Source of the DNA: a virus
Strand: one strand, 5' to 3'
IMG/VR virus record: IMGVR_UViG_3300037264_006454
Location: 1 to 42,358 of that record
DNA length: 42,358 nt
Part shown: one piece after another, positions 1 through 36,463 of the stretch
Numbering within the stretch: position 1 is the first letter of the stretch
Layout: every line of letters begins with the position of its first letter
Notes under the pieces: model-generated
What the model was told of the DNA's origin: nothing
Databases searched by the model: none
The model's input: the letters and a program-made list of their open reading frames with translations, nothing else
Position numbers and translations under genes: made by a program

Positions 1-458
1 TGATCCCCATTTGCCTCCGACGCCAGTACAACGTCTGCTGTCTGACGACCAGAGGCGTCAATTCCCAGTATAGTCGTACCAGGGAGCAGCGAGTCGGCTC
101 TCGCTTCTTGGCCAGACGCTAGCAGCACCGTGCTGCCCAGAGTCATACACTTCTCAACCTGCCGCCCGGTCTTAAGAAGCACCTGGGTGTCACGCCGGTT
201 GTACAGGGGCAGGAGGTAATTACGACCACTGAAGTCAAAACGCTTTCCGTTCAGGTACAGGATGGTGCCGACGAACGAGCTCTTAGTCGCCCGGAATACC
301 TTGCGCATCGTGCCATCGGCGTTGGCAACCTCGGTCACTTTTGCGACGTGGCGCGGCTCAATTTCTATGACACGGTCGTTATATTGACTATCCGCGACAA
401 GCGAGTCTTCCTCTTCGACTACAGGCGTTACCCCCATTTCCTTATGCATGGTTTCCAT
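1..458 (-). CDS. terL: Terminase large subunit, N-terminal extein plus start of an intein (partial)
   Basis: This gene runs off the left edge of the window; about 152 residues are visible. TerL is the ATP-driven motor that packages DNA through the portal. Residues 60-103 look like the adenine-binding and Walker A region of a terminase ATPase: YLLPLYN at 81-87, then KTGRQVEK at 96-103, where a Ser/Thr would normally follow the Lys. Instead Cys104 begins a run resembling intein block A (CMTLGSTVLLASGQ, then a second hydrophobic strand LLPGTTILGID). So the protein-splicing element appears to sit inside the nucleotide-binding loop. The start at 458 is the first ATG after an in-frame stop; ATGs at 449 and 437 are alternatives. 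The rest of the intein and the C-extein lie outside the window. Terminase identity rests on the short Walker A stretch and on gene order after a possible small terminase. Confidence 0.7.
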   Translation of the reverse strand, partial: METMHKEMGVTPVVEEEDSLVADSQYNDRVIEIEPRHVAKVTEVANADGTMRKVFRATKSSFVGTILYLNGKRFDFSGRNYLLPLYNRRDTQVLLKTGRQVEKCMTLGSTVLLASGQEARADSLLPGTTILGIDASGRQTADVVLASEANGD

Positions 459-724: not shown

Positions 725-1600
725 CTAGGTTTTCCACTGGGGCTTGGCTTCCTGAGTACCGCGCTGCAGCTCGGCCATTGCCGTGGCATCCGGCGTCGGA
801 AACTCCGAGTCCACGAACTCGAACTCCATCTGAAGGCTTTTCGAAAAGTCCTCGAGATCTCCGGTGCGGTGCTTCTCATACTTGTCGGCCAGCGCAATTG
901 ACGTGGTGATCCAAGCCCGTGCCTCGGCGTTGGATTCCTTGCTGCTCAACCGCAAGTAGTGCCGGGCCTTTTGGTAAGCGCTGGCAAACAGGTACTGCAG
1001 CGAGTCGGAAATGTTGCTCTTACTGGGGAGGTCCAGGAGAGTCTTGATTACGTCCAGTGGTTCACTCAGAGCCACGAACAGGATTGACCGCTCGGCCTCG
1101 CTGGCGCCGGCCAGGTACGATCGCCAGAGCGTCCTGGTCATCCGCCTGTGGTCCCAGAAGTACTTCGCGTACAGGTCAACGTGGGCGGGTTTCAGCATGT
1201 AGCTGAACTTGGTGTTGAGACTCTGGCAAATGTCGGGGGCGGCCGCACCCTTGAGCAGCAGCGCGTTAAGGCTCATCCGGAGCTTGATGTCGTGGTGGAC
1301 GTCGTAGACGAGGCGGAGGTTCCCATCATCCGGGTTGCGGTACGGCTTCTCAAGGAGCCACATGCCGCGGACGTCGAGCACGCCCATCCATTGAAGGAAG
1401 TCCCCCTCGTAGCGCTTGTCCAGCAGTTGCCTGGAGACCGGATCCGGAAGCGTGTCGTGGATGAGGTTGTAGTGCCGGTCGAGGTCTTCTTGAGTGATCG
1501 GTTGAAGGGTTAAATCGGTGAGAGCCGTGTTGACGAGCTCCAGCTCATCACAGCCTTTGGTGACCAGGAAGCGGACGTATAGTTCATAGGGCTTAACCAT
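725..1600 (-). CDS. Unknown protein, possible terminase small subunit
   Basis: A 291-residue, mostly helical-looking soluble protein with no membrane segment. It lies directly upstream of the large terminase in the same direction, where tailed phages usually carry the small subunit that recognises DNA for packaging. Around residues 117-150 there is a helix-turn-helix-like stretch (alanine-rich GAAAPDICQSL, then a Lys/Tyr-rich helix with YAKYFWD), which would suit a DNA-binding role. The length is larger than typical small terminases of 100-200 residues. There is no clear ribosome site before the ATG; an AAGAAG lies about 20 bases upstream. The small-terminase role is inferred from position and a weak motif only. 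Confidence 0.4.
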   Translation of the reverse strand: MVKPYELYVRFLVTKGCDELELVNTALTDLTLQPITQEDLDRHYNLIHDTLPDPVSRQLLDKRYEGDFLQWMGVLDVRGMWLLEKPYRNPDDGNLRLVYDVHHDIKLRMSLNALLLKGAAAPDICQSLNTKFSYMLKPAHVDLYAKYFWDHRRMTRTLWRSYLAGASEAERSILFVALSEPLDVIKTLLDLPSKSNISDSLQYLFASAYQKARHYLRLSSKESNAEARAWITTSIALADKYEKHRTGDLEDFSKSLQMEFEFVDSEFPTPDATAMAELQRGTQEAKPQWKT

Positions 1601-3857: not shown

Positions 3858-4484
3858 TTACACGATGACGCCAGTGCCCGAGCTGGTTCCGTTTAGTGGG
3901 CCTGTATCTCCGCCGGCCAGCGTGGCCGCCAAAAAGAAGGAGGCAAACAGCTCCTCGATGGTCGAGCTGACAGCGGCTGTGAGCTTCTTGGTATGGCAAG
4001 CTGGGCTATCCAGTTGAAATATTGGGTCTGGGGCGGCTTTGAGCTTTCCCTCCCACTCGGACTGTATACCTGATGGGGCTGTGCCCTTCCCAACCGCGAT
4101 CAGTGGGAGCGGCGGGGCCACGGGGTAGATGACGCCCGCGAATATGAAGCTGCTGGCCCACGTGGCGAACCTGGGAGTGAGCGCTTCCTTCAGTCCGTTC
4201 AGTAGCTTTTTGGTGCCATCCGTTTGCACGGTGAACCCGGCGCCAGTGAACACGGCTTGGATATCCAAAGTAAACGGAGGGGAGGTCATCTTGCCACCGG
4301 CGCCAACGAAGAAGACGATGGTCAGCTTGCCCCACTTAGTTCCGGTTATGAACGCGGTCCACTCCTTATTGATCTCGTCGCAGAGGCTCCCGATGAACTT
4401 CTGGAACTCAGGCGAGCCCGTTGTCTCAGCGCCCATTTTGCCGATGATCGTACTCTTGAGCAAAGCTGAGGGTGGTGCGGGCAT
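3858..4484 (-). CDS. Unknown virion-like protein (208 aa)
   Basis: A 208-residue protein with alternating Gly/Ala/Thr-rich hydrophobic strands (IVFFVGAGGKM near 57-67, FIFAGVIYPVAPPLPLIAVG near 113-132) and a Gly/Ser/Thr-rich C-terminus. The hydrophobic stretches contain Pro and Gly and look more like beta strands than transmembrane helices, though a membrane-interacting role cannot be excluded. It lies between the HNH endonuclease and the 658-aa gene in the same direction. No family recognised; a minor structural or tail-completion protein is the most natural guess from context. Confidence 0.55.
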   Translation of the reverse strand: MPAPPSALLKSTIIGKMGAETTGSPEFQKFIGSLCDEINKEWTAFITGTKWGKLTIVFFVGAGGKMTSPPFTLDIQAVFTGAGFTVQTDGTKKLLNGLKEALTPRFATWASSFIFAGVIYPVAPPLPLIAVGKGTAPSGIQSEWEGKLKAAPDPIFQLDSPACHTKKLTAAVSSTIEELFASFFLAATLAGGDTGPLNGTSSGTGVIV

Positions 4485-4500
4485 GGTAGTTACTTGCTAG

Positions 4501-5196
4501 TTACTTGTTACTTAGGCCAGCTATCCTGTGGCCTGTTTTTTCGATGAAAAGCTTTCTAAAGAAGCTGTTGTGCACGTACATCTCTCTTATTTTTTTGGTA
4601 GATCTGATCCGCTGAAGCTGACGGTGCCCGGGTGCTTTGTAGTGTTCTTTGGCGTGGCACATCGGGCATAGGACCATTAGGTTTTTTACGGCGTTCCCGT
4701 CCTTGCTTCGTTTTCCGTTTTTATGATGGATAGCCAACATACCAACCTCTTCACACCACCCGCACCCCTCGCACGCGTACCCTTTGAACACAAAGGCTTT
4801 GTACTTGTAGCGAAGGTTCTGCATTGGGAGGTTGGGGTCACTGAGCGTGGTGGACATAGAGGAGTAAAATCCACCGCAAATTTTGGAACAAAACTTATTC
4901 GCGTTCCCGTCTCTCTTTAGAACCACGACATGTTTTCCACATGTGAGGCAGTCAAACCTCTTTCTGTTCTCAATCCAGGATTTACTTTTACATTCCCAGG
5001 AGCAGAACTTTTGATGCCTATACTTTTCGTCAGTGGTTTTTCTACGCGGACTTAGAAATTTCTCTTTGCATCTAGTACAGACCTTGAAGCGTTTTACTAT
5101 GGCTCTGTTCGCGTGTTGACAGGCTCTTGAGCAGAATTTTCTATTCCTGTGTGGCGCGTTGTAAGTTCGGTGACATTGCGGACAGCGAAGTAACAT
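4501..5196 (-). CDS. HNH homing-type endonuclease with four Cys zinc-ribbon pairs
   Basis: A 231-residue protein built from repeated zinc knuckles: C5/C8 with C22/C26, C40/C43 with C65/C69, C83/C86 with C103/C107, and C142/C145 with C177/C180. The last pair frames an HNH nuclease core: IHHKNG at 156-161, Asn172 in KNLMVLC, and His181/His185 in CHAKEH. HNH enzymes cut DNA using one metal in the beta-beta-alpha fold, and free-standing copies in phages usually spread by homing. GGAGGGG five bases before the ATG supports this start. It is inserted between the spike gene and the 208-aa gene, breaking a virion operon, as expected of a mobile homing gene. No intron boundary was detected. Confidence 0.85.
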   Translation of the reverse strand: MLLRCPQCHRTYNAPHRNRKFCSRACQHANRAIVKRFKVCTRCKEKFLSPRRKTTDEKYRHQKFCSWECKSKSWIENRKRFDCLTCGKHVVVLKRDGNANKFCSKICGGFYSSMSTTLSDPNLPMQNLRYKYKAFVFKGYACEGCGWCEEVGMLAIHHKNGKRSKDGNAVKNLMVLCPMCHAKEHYKAPGHRQLQRIRSTKKIREMYVHNSFFRKLFIEKTGHRIAGLSNK

Positions 5197-5212
5197 CTTA
5201 ACCCCTCCAAAA

Positions 5213-6262
5213 CTACTTAGAAGCTTTTACTGTACCACTTCCAGGTAAGAGGGGGAGGCCAGTAAATTGGGACACTGCGCTAGGAGTTGTGAGCACCTTC
5301 TCAAGCCCGCCGCCGCCATCCAGATCAATGTTGGCACCTTTAATGGTTACCTTTCCAGACGCAGTCACGTCCATCTTGCCCGCGGTCGTCAGTGTCACTG
5401 ATCCGTCCGGCTTCATGCTCAACGTAACCTTGCCAGGTCCGATATCGATAGTTGTTTCCCCGGACTGATCGATGGTGATGGTTGTTTTTCCGGCGACGTC
5501 GAGCTTGGAGGTTCCGTCTGGTTTGATGGTGTGCTTGTATCCGGTCACCGCTCCTGGTGCTCGGACGAAGAGCTCGGTCGTTCCGTCGACGGCGACTGAG
5601 TGGGTCCACACTGGCGCGTCAGTGCCAACATCAGCCCCAGCCCCCATAGAAGTACGGGATATAAGTGTGCCGTCAACTGAACCCCTTTCCTCGATAATGA
5701 CGTTCGTTCTTTCAACGCCGTCTCGCAGTTCTCTTCTATAAAGCGTGGCACCGGCACCGTCGTTGATCCAATCTACCGTTCCTCCATCAGCTCGTAATTC
5801 GTAGTTCCGGCAGAGAGTATTGATCAGGCTCTGGTCCGGGAAATAAAACGTTCGACAGGTCGGGGTCGATTGAATCTCTATCTCTCCGTGGGCTCTTAGG
5901 ATGACCTTGTTCCCGCCTACGGTCTTGAGTATCCGGTCCCCTTCGTTCAGTGGCTCTCGTGAACCGGCTGTTCCCGTTGGGGACCAGAAGCCGAAGATGA
6001 ACGGCTCCCCCGATATATAGAACACCAGCCCGTAAGAGTTCACTCTTGGGATGGTGCCGGCCTCGTCCCCGTCTGGGTTTGAATCCCCCGATATCCACTG
6101 GCACTTGGGCAGGTGGTTATCGTCGGTAGACCCGCGACCCATGAATGTTTTTACCTCACAAAGGCGCTCCTCTGGGTAGACCTTGGTAATGCGGCCGAAG
6201 GCTATAGAGCCATTCTGCTGCTCACGGGTCGAGTTTCCTTGCTCAAATAGGGACCGATCCAT
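5213..6262 (-). CDS. Baseplate central spike protein (gp5/gp45/VgrG-tip type)
   Basis: 349 residues from the ATG at 6262. Residues about 15-110 form an OB-fold-like barrel (FGRITKVYPEERLCEVKTF and following strands ending GLVFYISGEPFIFGFWSP). The second half is a run of short alternating strands (KTTITIDQSGETTIDIG, then KVTLS, SVTLT and KVTIKG), the signature of a trimeric beta-helix needle. The end (GLPLLPGSGTVKASK) resembles tip segments of phage spikes. The spike pierces the outer membrane at the centre of the baseplate, which suggests a contractile tail. A longer in-frame start at 6343 would overlap the ssb promoter and ssb start on the other strand, so I reject it. No strong ribosome site is visible. 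Confidence 0.8.
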   Translation of the reverse strand: MDRSLFEQGNSTREQQNGSIAFGRITKVYPEERLCEVKTFMGRGSTDDNHLPKCQWISGDSNPDGDEAGTIPRVNSYGLVFYISGEPFIFGFWSPTGTAGSREPLNEGDRILKTVGGNKVILRAHGEIEIQSTPTCRTFYFPDQSLINTLCRNYELRADGGTVDWINDGAGATLYRRELRDGVERTNVIIEERGSVDGTLISRTSMGAGADVGTDAPVWTHSVAVDGTTELFVRAPGAVTGYKHTIKPDGTSKLDVAGKTTITIDQSGETTIDIGPGKVTLSMKPDGSVTLTTAGKMDVTASGKVTIKGANIDLDGGGGLEKVLTTPSAVSQFTGLPLLPGSGTVKASK

Positions 6263-6283
6263 AAAAGAATAGTAGTGGCACGT

Positions 6284-6292
6284 GGGTATAAG
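6284..6292 (+). promoter_or_regulatory. Candidate promoter element GGGTATAAG upstream of ssb
   Basis: TATAAG at 6287-6292, preceded by GGG, lies 31 bases before the ssb start. There is no good TTGACA-like -35 box at the expected distance. The same GGTATAAG word precedes two other plus-strand units (11112-11119 and 20600-20607), so it may be a phage-specific promoter. AAGGAG follows just before the ssb ATG. Confidence 0.4.
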
Positions 6293-6323
6293 AGCAACGA
6301 AACGTATATAACAAGGAGCAATC

Positions 6324-6725
6324 ATGGCCAGTGGAGTAAACAAAGCTATCTTGATCGGTCACCTCGGGAGGGATCCCGAAGTCAGACACACTCAAGAAGG
6401 AACGGCGGTCGCTAATTTTAGCATCGCCACCAACGAGTCGTGGACCGACAAGGCAGGTGCCAAGCAAGAAAAAGTCGAGTGGCACAACATCGTCGCCTGG
6501 GGAAAGCTGGGCGAGATCTGTGGGCAATACCTGAAGAAGGGCTCGCAGGCCTATATCGAAGGCAGACTTCAGACCAGAGAATGGGAGAAGGACGGAGTCA
6601 AGCGGTACACGACGGAAGTCGTCGCCGGTAACATTCAGTTCCTTGGTGGCAAACCTGGTGGTGATCGTCCGCCTCACCCGGCTGATGCGGGCGCGCCTGC
6701 GGGGGCTGAGGACGGACCGCTGTAG
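6324..6725 (+). CDS. ssb: Single-stranded DNA-binding protein
   Basis: A 133-residue SSB. It coats single-stranded DNA during replication, recombination and repair, normally as a tetramer. The OB-fold is complete over residues 1-107: [43 protein letters not shown] and [19 protein letters not shown] are classic SSB blocks. A short Pro/Gly/Ala-rich linker follows. The last residues are AEDGPL rather than the usual DDDIPF tip, so interaction with host SSB partners may be altered. It is preceded by AAGGAG, is divergent from the spike gene, and is followed by a strong terminator, so it can be expressed as a single-gene unit. Confidence 0.97.
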
Positions 6726-6751
6726 TACAAATTCTTTGTAATACAAACTTG

Positions 6752-6782
6752 GCCCCTCTCCTTTACGGGGGAGGGGCTTTTT
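6752..6782 (+). terminator. Intrinsic terminator after ssb
   Basis: GCCCCTCTCC pairs across a short TTTAC loop with GGGGGAGGGGC, followed by TTTTT. It ends the ssb transcript; the next gene starts 15 bases later with its own ribosome site. Confidence 0.85.
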
Positions 6783-6797
6783 AGAGAGGAGGTTGCT

Positions 6798-7736
6798 GTG
6801 AGGTTCAACAAGCTACTTCACTGCGAGATCGTTCTGGACAAGCGGGGTCCTGAGCACATGCGACAGGTCTACAAGAACGCGCTCAGCCAGATATCGTTCA
6901 TTCCGGGGGTTGGGTTTAGGGGCACTCCCGCCATACGCAGCCTGCCAGATCACAACGTGATGGACCAGCTCTTCATACTGAAGAAGTATGTACTGGAGCG
7001 GCCGCCTATATACCATGTTGGGAGAGACTTTTTACAGGCCATGTCTGGTATATCCAACGAGATCCCGGTTGAGCTGTTGCCCAAGCGGTTTTTTGCTTAC
7101 CTATCTTTTGCCGACCACGCTATCCGAGACGAGGAGGACTGGGTGGAGGGGGCATACGTATTTATTGGTAGTGGGTTGGAAGCGGCACTTCGCCCGCAGG
7201 AGCATAACGACTATGTGCTGTGGATACACTATACAACCAAGAGCCAGTCTCTGGTGCGCTTGTGTGTGGAGTTGAAACATGGGCGGATAGATGACCTGGT
7301 GGCTGCCGCGATCAAAGATGATTTTACTCTCGGTGGGGCTATCCCGACTGACCCAAAGGACACCGAAGCCAGACTTCCCGTGTGGCGGGCCGTGATCAAT
7401 TTGGTCATGTATATCAATTCGGTAGATCCGGATTTGGTGCTGACACCTCCAGCCAGCACTCTAAAGCCAGCAGCAAAGAAAGCGGCGAGCGTTCAAAACC
7501 AATGCACGCTACCGATTACGCTGGTGTCGTGGAATTACCACGCTCCGCATTACCACAACGTAGACAAGTCATTTGTAAACACGTTCCAGAGGTGGCAACG
7601 AGTAGGCCCGCAGCTATCTCAGGTGAAATTAATATGGGTCACCGAACACGCAAGGAGATACAAAAATGTACGAGTACGAGGAATTTCCACAGGAGGAAGC
7701 GAAGCTGTTTCTACAGACACTTCAACTGGAGCATGA
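6798..7736 (+). CDS. AcrVA2-like protein (possible anti-CRISPR family)
   Basis: A 312-residue soluble protein with a GTG start and a strong GAGAGGAGG ribosome site. Several features recall the AcrVA2 family: a central run around residues 90-130 (IPVELLPKRFFAYLSF), a helical block near 190-210 (VWRAVINLVMYINSVDPDL), and a C-terminal His/Trp/Arg-rich block (HAPHYHNVD, then FQRWQRVGPQ and KLIWVTEHARRY). AcrVA2 from Moraxella lowers Cas12a levels; most relatives occur in phages and plasmids of bacteria without Cas12a, so the true role may differ. The resemblance is by eye from motif order, not by search. It sits in a plus-strand accessory cluster after ssb. Its last 71 bases overlap the next gene in another frame. 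Confidence 0.5.
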   Translation: MRFNKLLHCEIVLDKRGPEHMRQVYKNALSQISFIPGVGFRGTPAIRSLPDHNVMDQLFILKKYVLERPPIYHVGRDFLQAMSGISNEIPVELLPKRFFAYLSFADHAIRDEEDWVEGAYVFIGSGLEAALRPQEHNDYVLWIHYTTKSQSLVRLCVELKHGRIDDLVAAAIKDDFTLGGAIPTDPKDTEARLPVWRAVINLVMYINSVDPDLVLTPPASTLKPAAKKAASVQNQCTLPITLVSWNYHAPHYHNVDKSFVNTFQRWQRVGPQLSQVKLIWVTEHARRYKNVRVRGISTGGSEAVSTDTSTGA

Positions 7737-8043
7737 GGGTATAGATATCCCAGGCGATGAGCTGCCCTTTCTTTGCCAGGTAGTGCAGACGCGAATCAAG
7801 GCGATGAAGCTACCAATTGAATTTACTAAGCCGGCACTATTTGCTATCTGTTGCTTCACGGATATACCAGGTGGTGCGGTAGTGTTCCTCATCGACGCGC
7901 TTAACCAATTCGAAGGAAAGACCGTCACGGCTGCAATGCTGGGTGACCTGTATCCGTGGGGGTTCTACACAGAGGAATCTCTGTTCAAGTATATCGACGG
8001 AGAAATCAAGACCCGGACCAAGAAGTGGTCTGAGGTCTACTAG
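7666..8043 (+). CDS. Unknown small soluble protein (125 aa)
   Basis: A 125-residue acidic protein, no signal peptide or membrane segment, no family recognised. AAGGAGATACAAAA directly before the ATG is a near-ideal ribosome site and fixes the start even though it lies 71 bases inside the previous gene. The sequence is Glu-rich at the N-terminus, with a hydrophobic core (ALFAICCFTDIPGGAVVFLIDAL near residues 48-70). It is co-transcribed with the AcrVA2-like and 264-aa genes, so it is probably also an early or host-interaction protein. Confidence 0.65.
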   Translation: MYEYEEFPQEEAKLFLQTLQLEHEGIDIPGDELPFLCQVVQTRIKAMKLPIEFTKPALFAICCFTDIPGGAVVFLIDALNQFEGKTVTAAMLGDLYPWGFYTEESLFKYIDGEIKTRTKKWSEVY

Positions 8044-8051
8044 GAGAACAC

Positions 8052-8846
8052 ATGTTTGATAAGTACCAAGTCAAGCTCACCTTTGCCCGCAGCGTACTGG
8101 CAACCAACCCCTGCGATCCCAACGTCATGGACGTGCATATCCAAGACAAGCAGCGAAAGCTCATCTTGGAAAAGGGCGGGATCAACACCCAAATAAACAA
8201 GTACTTGGACGAGATCCAGATATCCAAGGAAAAGGGAGCTGAGGAAACCAGCCGCCTCATTGACCGGCTGGAGACGCTCATTGGGTACACGCTCTCTCCC
8301 GAGGAGCGCCAGGACGCCATCGCCGGCACGCTCACTTCCTTGAAGGAGACCTTCGAGGAAATGGACGTGAAGGGAACGACCATCTTCTTCTGGGACAAGA
8401 AGGCGGATCGGCCGTGTCTGGGCTCGCACATGATCAAGGGCTACTTGAAGGCCGCGGCCGAGGCCATTGGGCGGACGCTGCCGACGAAGCACGGGACCGT
8501 GCTGCACTCGATCTCGTACACCCAGTCACTGATCAACCAGCATGTGAGTTGTGTGGAGGAGTTCATAACCTTCGACAGAGATATCGTGCGCAAAGAGGAC
8601 GGGACCACGGACTACCTGCAGCGGTCGCTACGGGCAATGACAGCCAAGGGCCCGCGGATCTCGCTAGCCAAGTCGGAGCAGGTCGCCGCCGGTGCAAAGC
8701 TGGAGTTCACTCTGCGGGTTATGCAGAACTCCCCCATCACCAAGGAGATTCTCTGCAAGCTGTTTGATTACGGGGAGCTGTCTGGTATCGGCCAGTGGCG
8801 CAACTCTGGGAGGGGTGCCTTCTCCTACGAACTGATGAAAGCCTAA
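8052..8846 (+). CDS. Unknown protein with a RAMP-like glycine loop (264 aa)
   Basis: A 264-residue soluble protein preceded by TAGGAGAACAC. Residues 1-110 are beta/alpha with a charged helix (KEKGAEETSRLIDRLETL). Around 110-135 there is a strand-helix block (TTIFFWDKKAD, GSHMIKGYLKAAAEAI). The C-terminus has KLFDYGELSGIGQWRNSGRG, resembling the glycine-rich loop that closes the ferredoxin-like fold of RAMP/Cas7-type RNA-binding proteins. This similarity is a motif impression only. It ends the accessory cluster just before a terminator hairpin, next to an AcrVA2-like gene, which makes a defence-related role worth testing. Confidence 0.6.
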   Translation: MFDKYQVKLTFARSVLATNPCDPNVMDVHIQDKQRKLILEKGGINTQINKYLDEIQISKEKGAEETSRLIDRLETLIGYTLSPEERQDAIAGTLTSLKETFEEMDVKGTTIFFWDKKADRPCLGSHMIKGYLKAAAEAIGRTLPTKHGTVLHSISYTQSLINQHVSCVEEFITFDRDIVRKEDGTTDYLQRSLRAMTAKGPRISLAKSEQVAAGAKLEFTLRVMQNSPITKEILCKLFDYGELSGIGQWRNSGRGAFSYELMKA

Positions 8847-8852
8847 TCTTGC

Positions 8853-8890
8853 AAAGCCCCGGTAGCTGGATATGCTATCGGGGCTTTCTT
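8853..8890 (+). terminator. Intrinsic terminator after the 264-aa gene
   Basis: AAAGCCCCGGTAGC pairs with GCTATCGGGGCTTT across a seven-base loop and is followed by CTT. The peptidase gene begins 15 bases further on. Confidence 0.85.
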
Positions 8891-8904
8891 ACAAAGGAGA
8901 CCCC

Positions 8905-10203
8905 ATGAAACTGATTCTACTTGGTTTGCTGCTATTGGTAGGGTGTAGCAAGCCTTCACCCTACGACATCAATGATCCCATTTTTTCTTACGCCAAGCAG
9001 GAGCGAGATGAGCTGGTGGCTGCCTGCGGTCCAGGCATCATCGCGGGTCAGAAGGGCGAGAACCACTGCACCTACCAGGTGGCAATGGACTCGTTGTTCT
9101 TTCAGCACCCTTCTCAGAAAACCGGACTCCTGCACGATCCGGATTGGGCCTACAGAGATGGCGTCGAGTGGGTTACGGCGTCGACCATGATTCCAGCACC
9201 CAACGTCTTCGATCTCAGAGAGCTGATGAAGAACGGGCAGCCCGAGATAAAGCAGCAGCAGTGCGGCGACTGTTGGGCCTGGGCGTCCCACCATGGCTAT
9301 GAGATATCACAGGCCGTACACGATGGGCTCGTCGTGGACAACTCCGTGCAGTCAGTATTGTCCTGCTCCAAGCAGGGTAGCTGCGGCGGCGGGTATATGT
9401 CGGCGGTTGATTTTATCCGTAATGGGCTGCCGCTCGAGGCGGGCTTTGCCTATCTCAATGGCACCACAGGCAAGTGCAAGTTCAATACGGCCGAGCTGAC
9501 CGCTGGCTGGGAACCCAAGATGGTAGGGACCCCCTACATTGGCTCGTCTCTGAACTACTCACGCTTCCTCAAAACGGATGACGGTTTTGCGGCAAAGCCC
9601 ACCGTTCAGGAGATGCGAGATATCTCCTTTCAGTGGAAGGCTCCGCTGGTCGTTACTGTGTCGGCTTACTCGGCCAGCGGTGACGGCATCGTTAACAGCT
9701 GCTCTGCGATCAACTCCGGCGGCAATCACATGGTCACCATCGTAGGATGGGATGACGAGAGCAGCCAGCTCAACGCGCACGTTTGGAATAGCTGGGGCAA
9801 GGCACACGGCAAAGACGGTGTCAGCAGAATCAAATGGGAGTGCGGGGCCGGCAAGCTGAACCGCGGGCTGGGCGTTTCTGCCAAAGTCGTGCAGTACAGA
9901 ACCGAGTGCAAAGTGCCGGTAGCGGCTATGGGCCCGGCCAAGCGTATGGTCATGCAAGGACTGTCGGTGAAGCTGGGCAAGAAGATGGCCGGCCAAACGT
10001 GCAAGTGGACGCCCTCGGAGGGGCTTTCTGACCCGAATGCTTGTGAGACGTTCGCCACGCCGTCGGTCAATACCGAGTACCACATGGTCGCAAGTAACGG
10101 TTGCGGTACGGCATCGACGATCACTCTCGTAGAGGTCTGGAGCCCAGGTGGTGGCCGGATCAACGACGAGGTCAAGACTCCGCATGGGACGGTGACGTTG
10201 TAG
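8905..10203 (+). CDS. Papain-like (C1A) cysteine peptidase, lipoprotein with PKD-like tail
   Basis: 432 residues from the ATG at 8905, with AAAGGAGA just upstream. Residues 1-14 are a lipoprotein signal ending LLVGC (Cys14), so the mature protein should be lipid-anchored, probably on the outer membrane since Ser follows the Cys. The catalytic set of papain is intact: Gln117 (oxyanion), Cys123 in CGDCWAWA, His275 in GGNHMVTIVGW and Asn295 in VWNSWG. Residues 154-163 (CSKQGSCGGG) match the conserved Cys/Gly stretch after the active site. Residues about 345-420 (KWTPSEGLSDP, NTEYHMVASNGCGTAS) look like a PKD/Ig-type beta-sandwich. Surface-exposed peptidases of this class are rare in phages; possible roles are superinfection exclusion or lysogenic conversion. 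A longer start at 8872 lies in the terminator and is rejected. Confidence 0.9.
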   Translation: MKLILLGLLLLVGCSKPSPYDINDPIFSYAKQERDELVAACGPGIIAGQKGENHCTYQVAMDSLFFQHPSQKTGLLHDPDWAYRDGVEWVTASTMIPAPNVFDLRELMKNGQPEIKQQQCGDCWAWASHHGYEISQAVHDGLVVDNSVQSVLSCSKQGSCGGGYMSAVDFIRNGLPLEAGFAYLNGTTGKCKFNTAELTAGWEPKMVGTPYIGSSLNYSRFLKTDDGFAAKPTVQEMRDISFQWKAPLVVTVSAYSASGDGIVNSCSAINSGGNHMVTIVGWDDESSQLNAHVWNSWGKAHGKDGVSRIKWECGAGKLNRGLGVSAKVVQYRTECKVPVAAMGPAKRMVMQGLSVKLGKKMAGQTCKWTPSEGLSDPNACETFATPSVNTEYHMVASNGCGTASTITLVEVWSPGGGRINDEVKTPHGTVTL

Positions 10204-14396: not shown

Positions 14397-14626
14397 CTCG
14401 ACTCCTTACGTGGTACAGAAAGCCTGTGGAAGTTGTCTTCGAGTTCTTTACGTGTTTTGGAACCAGCGACGGCCGGAACGTGCCTATTGTGTAGACTCCG
14501 GCCGTGCCTTCCTTCTAAATCCATGATGTGCTCATGCCGATCGATCTTGTCCCAGGTTCGGAAATGGCCACGGCCACCAACTGAAGCCCGCTTCTCGAAG
14601 CCCGCCCAGAAGTTAGTACTTTCCAT
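14393..14626 (-). CDS. Tagged basic protein (77 aa) directly after the RNA polymerase
   Basis: 77 residues from the ATG at 14626, which lies 14 bases inside the polymerase gene end. It starts MESTNFWAGFEKRASVGG, the shared tag with three extra residues. The rest is rich in His and Arg (HFRTWDKIDRHEHIMDLEGR) and probably binds nucleic acid or metal, though no family is recognised. I chose this start because it puts the tag at the N-terminus as in the other members. The longer frame start at 14713 lies deep inside the polymerase gene. Confidence 0.7.
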   Translation of the reverse strand: MESTNFWAGFEKRASVGGRGHFRTWDKIDRHEHIMDLEGRHGRSLHNRHVPAVAGSKTRKELEDNFHRLSVPRKESR

Positions 14627-17600
14627 CTTTGCCCTTCCCAAAAGTCGTTCCGTGGGCGAATGCCGGCACGGGGTGGTAGTCCTCGAGGTCCGTACTCCAC
14701 GCCTGCCCGGCACCTTCCGTCAGGGCTTTGGCCAGGTTACGGTAACCGAGCGCGCTCATCCAGTTCCGCTTGAGAAGCGGTAGCGTTGTCACGCTTTTCA
14801 GCATGGGTGCGTGCTGGATGGCATCCTTCTTCACCAGGACCTCTTTGTGGCCCAGTGCCTTGAGAAGGATGACCTCTTTGGTGCCGACCACTGTGCCGGC
14901 CCGGAGCAGCCCGTAGGTCCTCTCCAAAGTATAGCCGACCGCGTCCGCGACGGGTACCGTGGCGACCAGATTCTCGTTGTAATGCTGCGCCACGGTATAG
15001 GGCACGACGTCGCCCGGGACAAAGTCAGATTGCTTAGGATTATTGAGCACTCGGGTGGTGTTCCCGAGGCTCCTGACCACCGTCTCGAACACCTTCCGGT
15101 GAATCCGGACGCCCTGGTCTGAGTAGGCCTTGTGCAGCTCATCCACGACGTACTCCTGGGCGGGCTGCATGCCCTTCAGCTGCACGAGGTCCTGTGGCTT
15201 CACCACACCCTCGGAGAGAGTGTCGCCCGCACGCACACGGGCACCCACGGCGACCTTCAGGCCCCTTCCATGTGGTACGTGGACCTTCTTGTCGCCCACG
15301 TAAATGTCAAAGCCGCCGGCGATACCCTTGGTCACTAAAGTGACCAAGCCGTCATGAGGCGCGAGCGCCGCGGCCCCGGGCACGACCTTTGGCATCTTGA
15401 GCAGCTGGTCGATGCGCTTATAGCCGCCTGGTTCTACGCCAGTTTTGGCGGTCCCGCCTGTATGGAATGAGCTCAGTACAAGCTGCACCAACGGCTCTGA
15501 AATAGTCTGCCCTGCCTTAGCGCCGATGTTCTCCCCTACTTCGGGGGTATGACCGTGCTCGTCCAGGCCGTAGCATTTGGCGCAGGTGCCCTTGGGCTGC
15601 AGGCAAGTCAGCGGGCTTCTGACCATGACCTGCTTAGCTCCCCCTTTACGGAGGCGGTTGGCCACGGCCGCATCGATCAGCACGTTGGTAACGGCCTGGA
15701 AGCGCTCCAAGATATCCTGGCTGTCGACGTTCATCAGCACGCCCTTCTTGGTGCCGCAGTCCTTGGCCGAGATAACGTTGTCGATGGTACTGGCCATGAT
15801 GTCCTTCGAGAAGGCACCAGGCAGGCTCGTCTGAATCGCACGATCCATCATGCCCCGGCGGGCGCCGTACATGCTGGTCCAGTAGTCGCCAATGTCGAGG
15901 CCCTCGGCGTACGACTTCTTGATGACTGACGGTACGATTTTACCGGACGCGTCTGTTACAAATAAAGGGGTTGCGAGCATCTGTCTGAGTTGGCCACGTT
16001 CACCGCGTGCCCCAGACTCGACCATGTCATAGAGCGGGTTGTTCTTGCCCTTGAACCGCTTTGAAAGGATGCTGTCCAGTAGCGCAATACCGACACGGTT
16101 GGCGTCGGCCAGGTTGGTCATGCCACCGACCTTCTTCGTGATCTTGTCGCGGTTCCCTCGCATTACCGACAGATCATCCAGGCCAAGAGTGAATCCCGTA
16201 TCGAAGGCATGCTTCTCTCCCTCGGCCTTGAGCTCGGTCAGTACTCGGCCGTACTCATTTGAGCCGAGTTCCTTGCTCAGTCGATGAAGCATGTCGTGCA
16301 TGCTCTTTTTGGAAACGGTCTCAGTTATCAGCGGCTTGTCGATGATCTTGTTCAGCCGCGCGCGGCCAGCCGGCGTCTGCGACAGGTAGAAGAGGCCTAC
16401 CTGCGCTTCTTGCGACGGCACCATCATCAGCTTGCCCGTGCCCGGCTGGTATAGGTTCCTGGACGGTAGCATCTTCTCAGCTTCGCGGTTGGCTTCGTCA
16501 GATATCGGGACGTGTACAACGACGGTGTCCCCGTCGAAATCCAATCCAAAGCCCTTGTTGATAAGTGGCTGCACCTTCACCGCTGTCCCCGAAGTCAGCT
16601 TCGGCCGGAAGGCCATGATCGAAAATTTGTGCAGTGACGGCGCCCGGTTTAGCAGCACCTTGCGGCTGGCCATCACTACATCGAGAGCTTTCTTGGCGAG
16701 CTCTGTCTTGAGCTTGATCTCATCCAGGGCCTGGTTGGGGGTCTTGCCGAAGCGGCCGAGCTCGCGGACGAGGAACGGCTCAAAGACCTTCCAGGCCATT
16801 TGCTCTGGAATCGCAAGTTCATCTACTCCCAACGTAGGCTCTGGAATTGCGGTTGCGCGGCCAGCGTAGTCCTGCCGCTTACTGAGCATCTTGCTGATGA
16901 AGAATCCTTCTTTGGGCTGGCCCTCGGCGCCACCACCCTTGATATCTGAGATGAAGCCGGCGCGCTCACGGCCTTTGATGGGGATGTCGACCAGGCCGCT
17001 GATGCCCTTGGCGTGGTGGTAGATATCGCCACGGATCATGGCCTTGTCTTCTTCAGGCAGCATGTCCACGACTGGAAACTTGTGCAGCTGATTCAGAATG
17101 GCCAAGTTCTGGTAGATCAGGTTCACGTCCGACGTGGTCGTACTGCCGTCGGGCAGAGTGTAGATGGGCCTGTACACCGGTGGGACGACCGGCATGGTCT
17201 TTCGCAAGTACGCTTCAGTAGGTTTCAGGTCGTACTTCTTCAGCGCCATCAGGTAGCGAATCTTCTTGTTGAGATCATCCAGCACAGCACCCTTGGCCGT
17301 CTTGGACTTCTCCAGGTGGCCCTTGAGCTGGGCATCAACGTCGATGTTGCCGAGCAGCTTCTCTACGGCGTGCCCGCCAGTGACTCCGCGGCCTTCTTTG
17401 TTGAGATCCCCGTTCTTATCCAGATGAAGCCGACCGGCCATGAGCTCGTCGTACTTGCCGCCGAGACCGGTGAGCTTACGGACAGCATTCTCAAACACCG
17501 GGTTGACGATCGGTTCTTTGAGGTTGATGTGCCCCCACTTGGTCCCTTTGAAGCCGCCGAATTTGACCGGATCCAGGAAGCCGTCCTTCTCGGGCTGCTT

Positions 17601-20591
17601 GTCCTTGGCTCTGAAAAACTTTGGGTTGGTGACCTCTCCGGAAGAGAGCTTCTTGACCTCGCTGTCTGTCAGCGGGGCAAGCGTCAGCTTGGAGCCGTCC
17701 TTTCTGACGTCAATGCCGGCGCCGCGCAGATAGGCCATGAACTTGTCGTAGACAAAGGGCGAGGTCGGAGGCGGCAGCTGCTGCCCTTCTTTGAGTGCCT
17801 TCCAGTACTCGTCGTTCTGGCTGGCCTTGGTCGTGCTCATCTCCCGCAGGTTGGCGCGCGCCCCGTGGGAGAGCATGGAGTACATCGTCAGCAAATCGAG
17901 CGACTTTGAACTCTCCTCGCCGCCGGCTTTGAGCGGTTGCAGGTTTATGTCGTAAGGGTGGCCTGGACCGCCCTGGCGCGCGGAGAAGTTACCCTGGCTC
18001 AGTTTGAAGAGCTTCAATATGTAGGGATTGCCCACGTGCACGCGGCCGAGCTTCTTGCCGGTGACCGGATCAAAGAGCTCTTCCTTGTCATCTACGCCGG
18101 CATCCTTCAAATGCTTCTTGGTTGTCTCGAGGTAATCCTCGTTGGTGAAGTTGCTCATCACGTACGGCTTGCCCTTTTTCTTGGCTGCCTTGGCAATGGA
18201 CGACTCGTAGGTCTGACCAATGTTGATGCGTGAGATGATGCCGTGCGGGTTGAGCAGGATATCTACGGCCTCGCCCTTGGCGTTGCGTGGGGCGTCCCCG
18301 TCCTTGATGATGCGGGTGATGATGCCCTTGTTCCCGTGCCTACCCGCTAATTTATCTCCGATCTTAGCTCGTTCCTCTGTGCGTATGAAAACCGTCACGC
18401 CCTTGGAAGTGCGCTGCACGTCGATGACTTCGCCTGTGTCATCGTAGGACCAGTACACGCTATCGTCCCTGGGCCGGTCCGCGAGCTGGCGTTGAACGAC
18501 GCCGATCATCTTGCTCGGTTCCCGGCGGCGAAGGGCGGCGATGACCGCGTCTCCCATTTCCACCTTCTGGCCCTTGCGGATGACGCCGTCTTCGTCGAGC
18601 TTCTTCAGGTTCTCAGGGGTGAGCGCGTTCGGGTACTGCGTCTTGAATGTGCTCAGCTTGAGTACGGTCGTATCGTCAGTATCAAGCGTCTTCCTATGAA
18701 TATGCGTACTGGTGAGCTTTTCAGCTGCAGCCTCAGTAATAACGATCCCGTCGTCGTGGTTGAGACCTTGATACGGCAGATATGCAGTCCTGAGATTCGT
18801 ACCGAGTGCAAGAGTGCCGCCTTTGGTGAAGTTGCTTTCGGCCAAGAGCTGGCCCTTCTTGACCTTCTGTCCTACGGTCACGACGACTTCATGGTGCAGG
18901 TAGCTCTTACGATTCAGAACGAAATTGTTGTAGAGGCCGATCTTCTGCTCACCGGCTTTTGTTTTGAGCATCAGAAAGTCTTTGGAGATCTTTGTGATCG
19001 TGCCATCTTCCGGAGCGGTTACGGCTGTGTGCTTGCCGATCTCGTGCTCCATCGAGTTCGCACCGTAGCTGACCTGGACCAGAGGAGCTTCTCTGTGCTT
19101 GAGCGAGATCGCCTGCTCGAGCATCTTCGCCGCCATCATTGCCCGGTTGCCCTGGTTTGACGGGAGGAACGGGATCAAATTTGTGCTCATGGAGAAGAGC
19201 GCTTCCGGGGCAATGGTGAAGTAGTCCACTTCCTTGCGGGGCACCTCTATGGTTTGCCCCTTGTAGTTGACCTTTACCTTGTCACCCTTCTGGCCTGGGA
19301 ACGCGATCTTGGCATTGAAGGCTTGCGTAGCCGTGAGCTCTGCTGGCTTGTTGTTGCGGTCGGCGAGAACCATCTTCAGTTCTTTGCCGACCTTTCTCGC
19401 ACCGAGTGGAAGGTGGAGATTGGCACCTATGCGGCTGCTTTCTGGAGTGTTCACTGGATCAATGAACCCATAGTGGGTCGGGTGGATCTCGCGCATGGAC
19501 GAGGTCACTGCGTGCTCGCTAGTGACACCGCCGGATCCCATGATAGTGGCGCGGGCCTGGCCAGACGCCATCTCCAGCGGGTTCGTTTGCTCTGGCGTGG
19601 AGGACTTGTCATCCTGGGTGAAGAAGCTCTCCACGGTGGAGTTGAAAGCCTCCGGGTTCACGATCTGAGCAACGGTGGCCCTCTTCAGGTTGTCGATGCT
19701 GCGCTTTATCTTAAAGGTCAGAGTGTCTCTGTTTTTCTCGAGGCGCTCCTTGAGAAAGTCGTCGAGAGAGTGCAGTTCTTTGTACTCTAAAGAGTTCAAA
19801 TCGTGGGGCTCTTCTTTGGCCAGATGCACGTTCAAAAGCTTCTTGCTGGCAGCGAGCATCATCGGGCCGCTGACCTTGTCGAAGCCCTCGCCGAGTGTCA
19901 GCCTCGCCATTTCAGGGCTGAGCTTGGTCTTGGAGAAGTACTCTTTCAGATCGCCGACGCGGATACCAAAAGCGGTCACTGCGCGGGCGACTGACTTTGG
20001 GTCTGAGTCGCGGTTCGCCTGCAATAGCTCAGAGCCCCACGCTTGCGCTATGGCTTGGTCGCTCATGCCCATATACGACAGGATGGGGTAGAGCGGAATG
20101 TTGGCTTGCCCGCCGGCCACCTTGGAGATGGAGAAGCGGCCCTTTGTCTCATCGAACACGATGTCGAAGTTCTTTCCCTGGGCCAGGTTCACCATGGTCT
20201 TCAGTTCACCGTTCTGCTTCTTGACGATGTACACACCGGACCGCAGACGGAGCTGATTGTTGACCTGGTACTCGTTGCCGCCAACGATGTAAGAAAACCT
20301 GGGGGTGATCTTGGGCAGCAGGAACAGCCGCACCTTTGCGCTGTTGACAGCTTTGCCGGTCTGCTTGTCGATCAGTGACAGCCCTGCATATACAGGCACG
20401 CCCCACGTTCCACTTTTGGCCTTGGCCTCTGATTGAGAAGCGTAGTCAGTCTGCTCCAGCTTATCTTCCACGGTCACGCCGTCGAGTCGAAGCGACCGGA
20501 GCTTTCCTTCGATGGGGAACACGCCCCTGACCGCGTCAGTAGCTGCCTTTTTTATCGTCTCGAATTGCTGTCTGACATCGAAAGTTTTCAT
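14613..20591 (-). CDS. rpoBC: Fused beta-beta' multisubunit-type RNA polymerase (1992 aa)
   Basis: A single 1992-residue chain carrying both large subunits of a bacterial-type RNA polymerase. Beta part, about 1-925: HPTHYGFIDPVNTPESSRIG at 370-389, NLRTAYLPYQGLNHDDGIVI at 599-618, DKLAGRHGNKG at 746-756 and LNPHGIISRINIGQ at 780-793. Beta' part, about 985-1992: GHINL at 1020-1024, KRQDYAGRA at 1238-1246, NRAPSLHKF at 1315-1323, the catalytic DFDGD at 1351-1355, SGARG at 1526-1530 and a trigger loop at 1690-1714. One beta' zinc site is kept (Cys1612, 1663, 1670, 1673); the N-terminal zinc ribbon is missing. NADFDGD reads GLDFDGD. No alpha, omega or sigma gene was seen in the window. The gene leads a leftward operon of tagged genes and has no clear ribosome site. 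It could be a virion or an intracellular phage polymerase. Confidence 0.95.
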   Translation of the reverse strand: MKTFDVRQQFETIKKAATDAVRGVFPIEGKLRSLRLDGVTVEDKLEQTDYASQSEAKAKSGTWGVPVYAGLSLIDKQTGKAVNSAKVRLFLLPKITPRFSYIVGGNEYQVNNQLRLRSGVYIVKKQNGELKTMVNLAQGKNFDIVFDETKGRFSISKVAGGQANIPLYPILSYMGMSDQAIAQAWGSELLQANRDSDPKSVARAVTAFGIRVGDLKEYFSKTKLSPEMARLTLGEGFDKVSGPMMLAASKKLLNVHLAKEEPHDLNSLEYKELHSLDDFLKERLEKNRDTLTFKIKRSIDNLKRATVAQIVNPEAFNSTVESFFTQDDKSSTPEQTNPLEMASGQARATIMGSGGVTSEHAVTSSMREIHPTHYGFIDPVNTPESSRIGANLHLPLGARKVGKELKMVLADRNNKPAELTATQAFNAKIAFPGQKGDKVKVNYKGQTIEVPRKEVDYFTIAPEALFSMSTNLIPFLPSNQGNRAMMAAKMLEQAISLKHREAPLVQVSYGANSMEHEIGKHTAVTAPEDGTITKISKDFLMLKTKAGEQKIGLYNNFVLNRKSYLHHEVVVTVGQKVKKGQLLAESNFTKGGTLALGTNLRTAYLPYQGLNHDDGIVITEAAAEKLTSTHIHRKTLDTDDTTVLKLSTFKTQYPNALTPENLKKLDEDGVIRKGQKVEMGDAVIAALRRREPSKMIGVVQRQLADRPRDDSVYWSYDDTGEVIDVQRTSKGVTVFIRTEERAKIGDKLAGRHGNKGIITRIIKDGDAPRNAKGEAVDILLNPHGIISRINIGQTYESSIAKAAKKKGKPYVMSNFTNEDYLETTKKHLKDAGVDDKEELFDPVTGKKLGRVHVGNPYILKLFKLSQGNFSARQGGPGHPYDINLQPLKAGGEESSKSLDLLTMYSMLSHGARANLREMSTTKASQNDEYWKALKEGQQLPPPTSPFVYDKFMAYLRGAGIDVRKDGSKLTLAPLTDSEVKKLSSGEVTNPKFFRAKDKQPEKDGFLDPVKFGGFKGTKWGHINLKEPIVNPVFENAVRKLTGLGGKYDELMAGRLHLDKNGDLNKEGRGVTGGHAVEKLLGNIDVDAQLKGHLEKSKTAKGAVLDDLNKKIRYLMALKKYDLKPTEAYLRKTMPVVPPVYRPIYTLPDGSTTTSDVNLIYQNLAILNQLHKFPVVDMLPEEDKAMIRGDIYHHAKGISGLVDIPIKGRERAGFISDIKGGGAEGQPKEGFFISKMLSKRQDYAGRATAIPEPTLGVDELAIPEQMAWKVFEPFLVRELGRFGKTPNQALDEIKLKTELAKKALDVVMASRKVLLNRAPSLHKFSIMAFRPKLTSGTAVKVQPLINKGFGLDFDGDTVVVHVPISDEANREAEKMLPSRNLYQPGTGKLMMVPSQEAQVGLFYLSQTPAGRARLNKIIDKPLITETVSKKSMHDMLHRLSKELGSNEYGRVLTELKAEGEKHAFDTGFTLGLDDLSVMRGNRDKITKKVGGMTNLADANRVGIALLDSILSKRFKGKNNPLYDMVESGARGERGQLRQMLATPLFVTDASGKIVPSVIKKSYAEGLDIGDYWTSMYGARRGMMDRAIQTSLPGAFSKDIMASTIDNVISAKDCGTKKGVLMNVDSQDILERFQAVTNVLIDAAVANRLRKGGAKQVMVRSPLTCLQPKGTCAKCYGLDEHGHTPEVGENIGAKAGQTISEPLVQLVLSSFHTGGTAKTGVEPGGYKRIDQLLKMPKVVPGAAALAPHDGLVTLVTKGIAGGFDIYVGDKKVHVPHGRGLKVAVGARVRAGDTLSEGVVKPQDLVQLKGMQPAQEYVVDELHKAYSDQGVRIHRKVFETVVRSLGNTTRVLNNPKQSDFVPGDVVPYTVAQHYNENLVATVPVADAVGYTLERTYGLLRAGTVVGTKEVILLKALGHKEVLVKKDAIQHAPMLKSVTTLPLLKRNWMSALGYRNLAKALTEGAGQAWSTDLEDYHPVPAFAHGTTFGKGKDGKY

Positions 20592-35378: not shown

Positions 35379-35876
35379 ATGAATCCAACAATCATCCGGC
35401 CCTTTTCTGACGGCGTGTTCAGTGACTTGGCAGGTCATGTACGGGAGGTCCGCAGAATCTTTGAAGGCACTCCCTGGCATGACGTGGGGGCTCCTGACAA
35501 GGACCGGTTCAATCGTTATTGGTTTCACAATCTGCCGCTTTTGGTAAAGCTCCACAAAGAATTGAAGGTGGATGAAATCTTCGGAGAACCAGTAAAGCCA
35601 AGCTACGTCTTCCTCTCTATGTACGGTGATGAAGGCATCTGCCCACTCCACACCGACCGCCCCCAGTGCAAGTATACGGCAGACCTCTGTATAGATCAGA
35701 AGGAAGTGTGGCCCATCATGGTCAGCGACGAGGAGTATCTGCTTCAGCCCGGAGAAGCCCTCTGCTACTCAGGAACGGACCACCCCCACTACAGAAATAG
35801 AATCCAACCTGGAAACTTTTGCAACCTGGCCTTCTTTCATTTTGTCCCGGTAGCGTTTGAAGGGAGACTTGAGTAA
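35379..35876 (+). CDS. 2-oxoglutarate/Fe(II)-dependent oxygenase (165 aa)
   Basis: 165 residues with a jelly-roll oxygenase pattern. The iron-binding triad is His91-x-Asp93 (PLHTDRP) with a distal His at 135 or 137 (GTDHPHYRNR), and Arg139/141 is a candidate 2-oxoglutarate anchor. Strands around LQPGEALCYSG match the usual pre-distal-His segment. These enzymes use O2 and 2-oxoglutarate to hydroxylate proteins, nucleobases or small molecules. It is one of only two plus-strand genes in the virion module and is coupled to a second oxygenase (TAATG overlap). The ribosome site is weak. The substrate is not known. Confidence 0.85.
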   Translation: MNPTIIRPFSDGVFSDLAGHVREVRRIFEGTPWHDVGAPDKDRFNRYWFHNLPLLVKLHKELKVDEIFGEPVKPSYVFLSMYGDEGICPLHTDRPQCKYTADLCIDQKEVWPIMVSDEEYLLQPGEALCYSGTDHPHYRNRIQPGNFCNLAFFHFVPVAFEGRLE

Positions 35877-36463
35877 TGCCTTTTGTTTTGCCTCAGCCAG
35901 TTCGGCCAGAAGTCGCCCCGTATGTTTTTTTCAAAGACTTTTTGACGAAGGAAGAGTGTGAAAAATTAATATCACTTTCCAAAAACCTCTCACCAGAAAT
36001 AGCCCGCATCGGGGGGGACACCCCCGGTGGGGCAGTGGTCCCAGAAAAAAGGAAGACAGAGCTTTACTGGATACACTGGAGAGCGGATGTCACCTGGCTC
36101 TTCGAACGAATGGCAAATGCTGTATACAACGCCAATGTGAAATGGTGGGGCTACCATCTTGCTGGATTTAACGAAGCGATGCAGCTCACTCACTATCGTG
36201 GGGATGATAAAGGGTTCTACGGCTGGCATGAGGACCACGGCGACCAGGCCGGGTTTTCTCATCGGAAACTTTCTTCGGTGATCCTTCTCAATGACCAATT
36301 TGAAGGTGGAAACTTCGAACTGTTCCATCACGGCAAGCCAAACGAACTCACTGTTGGCAGTATGATTTTATTTCCCAGCTTCCGTGTTCACCGAGTTACT
36401 GAAGTAATCAAAGGCGACCGCTGGAGCCTTGTTAGCTGGGTCAGTGGACCACCCTTTGTTTAA
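35876..36463 (+). CDS. Prolyl-hydroxylase-like (P4H/PKHD-type) 2-oxoglutarate oxygenase (195 aa)
   Basis: 195 residues with a complete P4H/PKHD-type core: His118-x-Asp120 (WHEDHGD), then SSVILLNDQFEGGNFEL, a distal His172 (FPSFRVHRVTEV) and Arg182 (DRWSLVSWVSGPPF) to hold 2-oxoglutarate. This subfamily includes prolyl and lysyl hydroxylases acting on proteins. Its start overlaps the stop of the first oxygenase, and its own stop shares the TTTAAA with the stop of the oppositely oriented glycine-rich gene. That gene encodes Gly-x-Pro-like tracts, so a virion adhesin is a candidate substrate (inference). Confidence 0.9.
   Translation: MPFVLPQPVRPEVAPYVFFKDFLTKEECEKLISLSKNLSPEIARIGGDTPGGAVVPEKRKTELYWIHWRADVTWLFERMANAVYNANVKWWGYHLAGFNEAMQLTHYRGDDKGFYGWHEDHGDQAGFSHRKLSSVILLNDQFEGGNFELFHHGKPNELTVGSMILFPSFRVHRVTEVIKGDRWSLVSWVSGPPFV

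What the first reader, a model, noticed from the sequence alone, without database searches (positions are those of the whole stretch)
1..458. Intein beginning inside the Walker A loop of the large terminase
The sequence KTGRQVEK is followed by Cys104 and an intein block A-like stretch (CMTLGSTVLLASGQ, then LLPGTTILGID) instead of the expected Ser/Thr and helix. Inteins prefer such absolutely conserved sites. Packaging would depend on splicing.
Basis: partly seen in the sequence, partly recalled or inferred. Interest (0 to 1): 0.75.

Follow-up and report, generated by a model that had tools for sequence, protein, structure and literature searches.

The report
Intein inside a phage packaging motor
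The gene for this virus's DNA-packaging motor is interrupted, in the middle of its ATP-binding loop, by a self-splicing protein insert (an intein) that must cut itself out before the motor can work; such inserts are already known at this very spot in other phages.

Summary
The finding holds. On the minus strand (458-3) the window encodes the first 103 residues of a large terminase, ending at the Walker A lysine (KTGRQVEK), then Cys104 and the first 49 residues of an intein before the contig stops. Related viral records carry the same terminase next to the same upstream gene. Most lack any insert (...RQVEK|TTYLANN...). Six records (five distinct versions) carry 280-423 residues at exactly that K|T junction, ending His-Asn|Thr or Ser. 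A profile built only from those inserts finds the window fragment at E = 2.9e-13. One relative, a 71-kb contig (IMGVR_UViG_3300037264_007501), begins inside the same intein. It overlaps the window's edge by 11 exact bases, matches its composition far better than any other relative and lacks the window's genes, so it is almost certainly the missing side. Joined, it gives a 399-residue class 1 intein with two LAGLIDADG motifs and a 596-residue spliced terminase. The closest complete homologue is predicted as a HINT plus LAGLIDADG fold (top PDB hits: TliVMA, PI-PfuI, PI-SceI). This K|T site is the published TerL1-a site of mycobacteriophages (PMC5050341), so this is a new member of a known kind. 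Splicing and endonuclease activity are inferred, not shown.

The parts
3..458 (-). 5' part of the large terminase (TerL) gene, ATG at 458, running off the contig
   Evidence: ORF; aligns with full TerLs of nine relatives, whose exteins match Pfam GpA_ATPase
150..458 (-). N-extein: TerL residues 1-103
   Evidence: alignment with intein-free TerLs L025, L026, L028
150..170 (-). Walker A segment TGRQVEK; insertion point directly after the lysine
   Evidence: aligned with AGRQIGKS of Salmonella phage Arash TerL and TARQVEK|TTYL of intein-free relatives
3..149 (-). first 49 residues of the intein (Cys1, block A, first HINT strands); remainder lies beyond the contig edge, in record G010 (L054 1-1059)
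   Evidence: profile match E = 2.9e-13; 11-base overlap with L054 and in-frame continuation to ...VVNHN|TTF
725..1600 (-). context: conserved 291-aa gene directly upstream of TerL in the relatives read (synteny support)
   Evidence: homologous ORF of 282-336 aa upstream of TerL in L021-L028

Best explanation
The large-terminase gene of a tailed phage is interrupted by a class 1 intein (about 399 residues, Cys1 ... His-Asn|Thr) placed between the invariant lysine and the following threonine of the Walker A (P-loop) motif. Shown: the insert, its exact junctions in homologues with and without it, the splicing-block residues, the two LAGLIDADG motifs and the predicted HINT plus LAGLIDADG fold of a homologue. 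Inferred: the precursor cannot hold ATP because 399 residues split the P-loop. Cys1 then starts an N-S shift, Thr+1 takes over the N-extein, Asn cyclises, and the exteins are joined as ...TGRQVEK-TTFLGNN..., giving an active 596-residue TerL. The endonuclease cuts terL alleles that lack the intein, which spreads it between co-infecting phages.
For: Exact K|T junction and empty sites in relatives. Intein Pfam/NCBIfam hits on homologues: PF14890, TIGR01445, TIGR01443, PF14528. Window fragment E = 2.9e-13 to a profile built from the homologues. Contig G010 begins within the intein: 11-base exact overlap, in frame; whole-record tetranucleotide correlation 0.949 against at most 0.742 for other relatives; no RNAP gene and no sequence similarity to the window, so the two are complementary. 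The joined intein has Cys1, block B TLNHP, GLWLGDG and GLWATDG, and C-terminal VVNHN|TTF. The L047 model (pLDDT 83.6) matches TliVMA 7qss at Z 29.6, 2cw7 at Z 29.9, PI-SceI at Z about 21 and DnaB/RecA inteins at Z about 18. Presence and absence of the intein need five changes on an 18-taxon TerL tree, no more clustered than shuffled labels, as expected of a mobile element. The same K|T site carries an intein in Bacillus phage KLEB27-3 and in mycobacteriophages as TerL1-a (PMC5050341).
Against: Only 49 of about 399 intein residues lie in the window. The join to G010 is inferred from a short 11-base overlap plus composition and gene complement, not from reads. Pfam PF14890 and NCBIfam models do not reach significance on the short window fragment alone. 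Splicing was not tested.
Confidence: 0.95

Rival explanations
1. A degenerate or non-splicing HINT insert, or a pseudogene: the phage carries a broken terL at this contig edge and packages with another copy.
For: L048 (G003) shows that one homologue has lost much of its endonuclease domain (280 aa), so decay does occur in this lineage.
Against: The window part is open and conserved. The joined protein keeps Cys1, T-x-N-H, penultimate His and terminal Asn plus Thr+1, and both LAGLIDADG acidic motifs. No second terL was seen in either record, but the records are fragments.
Confidence: 0.03
2. A split intein or two-gene terminase: TerL is encoded in two genes and trans-spliced.
For: The window and G010 are separate records that meet inside the intein.
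Against: They overlap by 11 bases in frame, and all complete homologues are single continuous ORFs.
Confidence: 0.01
3. Chance resemblance: the protein is not TerL, or the tail after K103 is ordinary extein.
For: No Pfam or PHROGs family reaches the fragment alone.
Against: E = 4.5e-44 to a complete homologue across the junction, empty-site alleles and profile E = 2.9e-13.
Confidence: 0.01

Closest known systems
TerL1-a inteins of mycobacteriophages (Kelley et al. 2016, PMC5050341)
   Same: Large terminase; insertion between the invariant P-loop Lys and the Thr; TerL1-a is described there as the classic P-loop insertion.
   Different: Host terminase here matches Pfam GpA_ATPase rather than terminase_1/terminase_6; unrelated phage lineage; the Walker A residue before Lys is Glu (GRQVEK) instead of the usual Gly.
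TerL intein of Bacillus phage vB_BauM_KLEB27-3 (OM634661, residues after CGRRIGK)
   Same: Same K|T junction (CGRRIGK|C...VHN|TWTM); its insert is 26% identical to the LAGLIDADG-bearing L047 intein over 360 residues.
   Different: Distant terminase and distant intein.
DnaB and RecA inteins (Npu/Ssp DnaB, Mtu RecA) and PI-SceI / TliVMA
   Same: HINT splicing fold; in PI-SceI and TliVMA with a LAGLIDADG endonuclease in the same place.
   Different: Different host proteins; 12-28% identity.

Membership tests
Class 1 intein | In-frame insert in a conserved protein, absent from close homologues at the same site | tested here: met
   L025, L026, L028, L036-L045, L053 empty; window, L034, L046/L049, L047, L048 filled
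Class 1 intein | Nucleophile (Cys/Ser) as residue 1, block A | tested here: met
   Cys104 of the window ORF, profile match E = 2.9e-13
Class 1 intein | Block B T-x-x-H, C-terminal His-Asn followed by Cys/Ser/Thr | tested here: met
   Not in the window; TLNHP and VVNHN|TTF in the continuation L054 and the same blocks in L047, L046, L048. For the window itself this rests on the inferred join
Class 1 intein | HINT fold | tested here: met
   AlphaFold model of homologue L047 (56% identical) matches solved inteins at Z 18-30
Class 1 intein | Autocatalytic splicing | not testable with these tools
   needs expression or virion proteomics
LAGLIDADG (DOD) homing-endonuclease intein | Two LAGLIDADG motifs with acidic residue | tested here: met
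   GLWLGDG and GLWATDG in L054; PF14528 on homologues L046, L034, L029
Class 3 intein (WCT) | No N-terminal nucleophile; Cys in block F | tested here: not met
   Cys1 present; block F of the continuation QPTWALQTATETY has no Cys
TerL-a insertion site | Insertion between Walker A Lys and Thr/Ser of TerL | tested here: met
   alignment with empty alleles and with Arash AGRQIGKS; definition from PMC5050341
Large terminase (TerL) | P-loop ATPase plus RNase H-like nuclease motifs | tested here: met
   homologous exteins hit PF05876 GpA_ATPase at E about 1e-16 to 1e-20 (L029 1.2e-5, at its cut-off) and show LDE, GVDWG, GVDWGHG and DPDD motifs; Arash homologue annotated large terminase subunit

The most novel reading that the evidence does not exclude
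The intein is kept as a post-translational timer: splicing at the P-loop is tuned to late-infection conditions so that TerL gains ATPase activity only when procapsids are ready. Some relatives also carry inteins at the RNA-polymerase catalytic motif, which would put both motors under splicing control.
Probability: 0.07. Interest if true: 0.6.

Novelty: new member of a known kind. Interest (0 to 1): 0.3.

Why it matters
It places a P-loop TerL intein, with its empty-site alleles, in a lineage of uncultured phages that encode a fused RNA polymerase, and in a terminase matching the GpA family. It also warns annotators: the packaging gene looks like an orphan fragment at a contig edge because the contig breaks inside the intein. 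Scattered presence and absence make the lineage useful for studying intein gain and loss. It does not change what is known about inteins.

Tried and rejected
Pfam, PHROGs and NCBIfam on the window fragment alone gave no significant family. Direct search of phage genomes and of viral contigs with the fragment found nothing; the way in was the conserved RNA polymerase. An exact 30-base pattern at the window edge had no hit in viral contigs. Genome contigs gave no relative, so no host or prophage was found. I considered class 3 for the relatives' inteins because L029 starts with Thr and ends VTHN, but I placed its block F Cys at F:2 rather than F:4 and saw no Trp at B:12 (hand placement of blocks), so I did not call it class 3. 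CrAss-like phage cr53_1 has a TerL intein-like insert, but not in the P-loop.

Full report
What is in the window. The window is the whole of a 42,358-base viral record. Its left edge cuts an ORF on the minus strand that starts at ATG 458 (or GTG 473) and reads ...FSGRNYLLPLYNRRDTQVLLKTGRQVEKCMTLGSTVLLASGQEARADSLLPGTTILGIDASGRQTADVVLASEANGD before the contig ends. No profile library recognised the fragment alone at a significant level, and neither phage genomes nor viral contigs held a direct match to it.

Finding relatives. The window also encodes a 1992-residue fused RNA polymerase (14613-20591 minus). It led to nine related viral contigs, and all nine hold a homologue of the fragment (best E = 4.5e-44 across the extein/intein junction). 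A second scan with a TerL alignment gave 25 loci, partly the same contigs. The homologues match Pfam GpA_ATPase and align with the annotated large terminase of Salmonella phage Arash, whose Walker A is AGRQIGKS. The gene directly upstream (725-1600) is conserved next to TerL in the relatives L021-L028.

The junction. Relatives without an insert read LLKTARQVEK|TTYLANN (for example L025, L026, L028). Relatives with an insert read LLKTGRQVEK|C...HN|TTFLGNN (L048), and likewise in L046/L049, L034 and L047; L029 has Thr as first residue and Ser at +1. The insert therefore lies between the Walker A lysine and the following threonine. The inserts are 280-423 residues and match intein models: PF14890, TIGR01445, TIGR01443 and the LAGLIDADG family PF14528. 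A profile of their N-termini, built without the window, finds the window fragment at 45.2 bits, E = 2.9e-13 over all six frames; the best of 2000 shuffles reached 8.4 bits.

The missing side. One locus, L054, is the start of a 71,398-base record (G010) and opens inside the same intein. The window's coding strand ends ...AATGGGGATCA and L054 begins AATGGGGATCA, in the same frame. The two records share no sequence similarity, and G010 lacks the RNA polymerase. GC is 0.567 against 0.560. The composition-normalised tetranucleotide profile correlates at 0.949 between the whole records, against at most 0.742 for any other relative locus over 20 kb. I take them as two sides of one virus; this is an inference, but two independent homologues breaking within 11 bases of each other would be a remarkable accident. 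Joined, the protein is 995 residues (counted from GTG 473) with an intein at 109-507 (399 residues); spliced length is 596, like the intein-free relatives. The intein has Cys1, block B TLNHP, GLWLGDG and GLWATDG, and C-terminal VVNHN followed by Thr.

Fold. The complete homologue from L047 (56% identical to the joined intein) was modelled with mean pLDDT 83.6. Its best matches are whole inteins with homing endonucleases: 7qss TliVMA (Z 29.6), 2cw7 (Z 29.9), PI-PfuI and PI-SceI, then the DnaB and RecA mini-inteins. Sequence search of the PDB also returns DnaB and RecA inteins.

Distribution. On a tree of 18 TerLs the intein's presence needs five changes, no more clustered than shuffled labels. 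L034 (filled) and L025 (empty) are 82% identical outside the intein. This is the scattered pattern expected of a mobile, losable element. L048 appears to have lost the first LAGLIDADG half.

What is known. Kelley and co-workers describe mycobacteriophage TerL1-a inteins between the invariant P-loop lysine and the threonine, and call it the classic P-loop insertion (PMC5050341). Bacillus phage KLEB27-3 has an intein at the same junction. CrAss-like phages of the delta group are reported to carry TerL inteins typically (PMC7886860). The present case is therefore a new member of a known kind. The modest differences are the GpA-type terminase and the Glu preceding the lysine in this lineage's Walker A.

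Mechanism. Class 1 splicing is inferred from the residues. That the unspliced precursor lacks ATPase activity, and that packaging waits for splicing, follows from the insert splitting Lys from Thr in the P-loop; it was not tested. Homing by the LAGLIDADG domain is likewise inferred.

Side observation. Intein-like inserts also occur in the RNA polymerases of several relatives, at three sites. At the site right after the catalytic NADFDGD motif, every carrier of one insert type (first residue Ser; L068, L073, L077, L086, L099) reads NADFNGD, whereas every other relative whose motif was read reads DFDGD there. I have no tested explanation.

Noticed in passing
L068, L073, L077, L086, L099 (RNA polymerase); compare window 14613-20591: In relatives an intein starting with Ser sits directly after the RNA-polymerase catalytic motif, and in exactly these carriers the middle catalytic Asp is Asn (NADFNGD, codon AAT); all other loci whose motif was read have DFDGD, including L078 and L069, which look as if they carry a different insert at the same place. 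Asn-Gly is prone to deamidation, or the change may be a co-conversion relic; unexplained.
   Followed up: partly
L029 (G005) TerL, minus 4159-8310: This TerL carries two intein-like inserts: one at Walker A beginning with Thr, and a second right after GVDWG of the nuclease motif (C...YQGN|TGEG).
   Followed up: partly
L005, L010 (RNA polymerase, after window residue 384); L006 (after residue 1710): Two further intein-like insertion sites in the fused RNA polymerase; the window's polymerase has no insert at any of the three sites.
   Followed up: partly
window 14613-20591 minus: Fused beta-beta' RNA polymerase in one 1992-residue ORF, related to Vibrio phage D69/D181 and Salmonella phage Arash.
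   Followed up: partly
window 4501-5196 minus: Free-standing HNH endonuclease gene with zinc-finger-like motifs.
   Followed up: no
window 8872-10203 plus: Papain-family (C1) cysteine peptidase in a phage, with a lipoprotein-like signal (LLVGCSK) near the N-terminus.
   Followed up: no
window 35876-36463 plus: 2OG-Fe(II) oxygenase.
   Followed up: no
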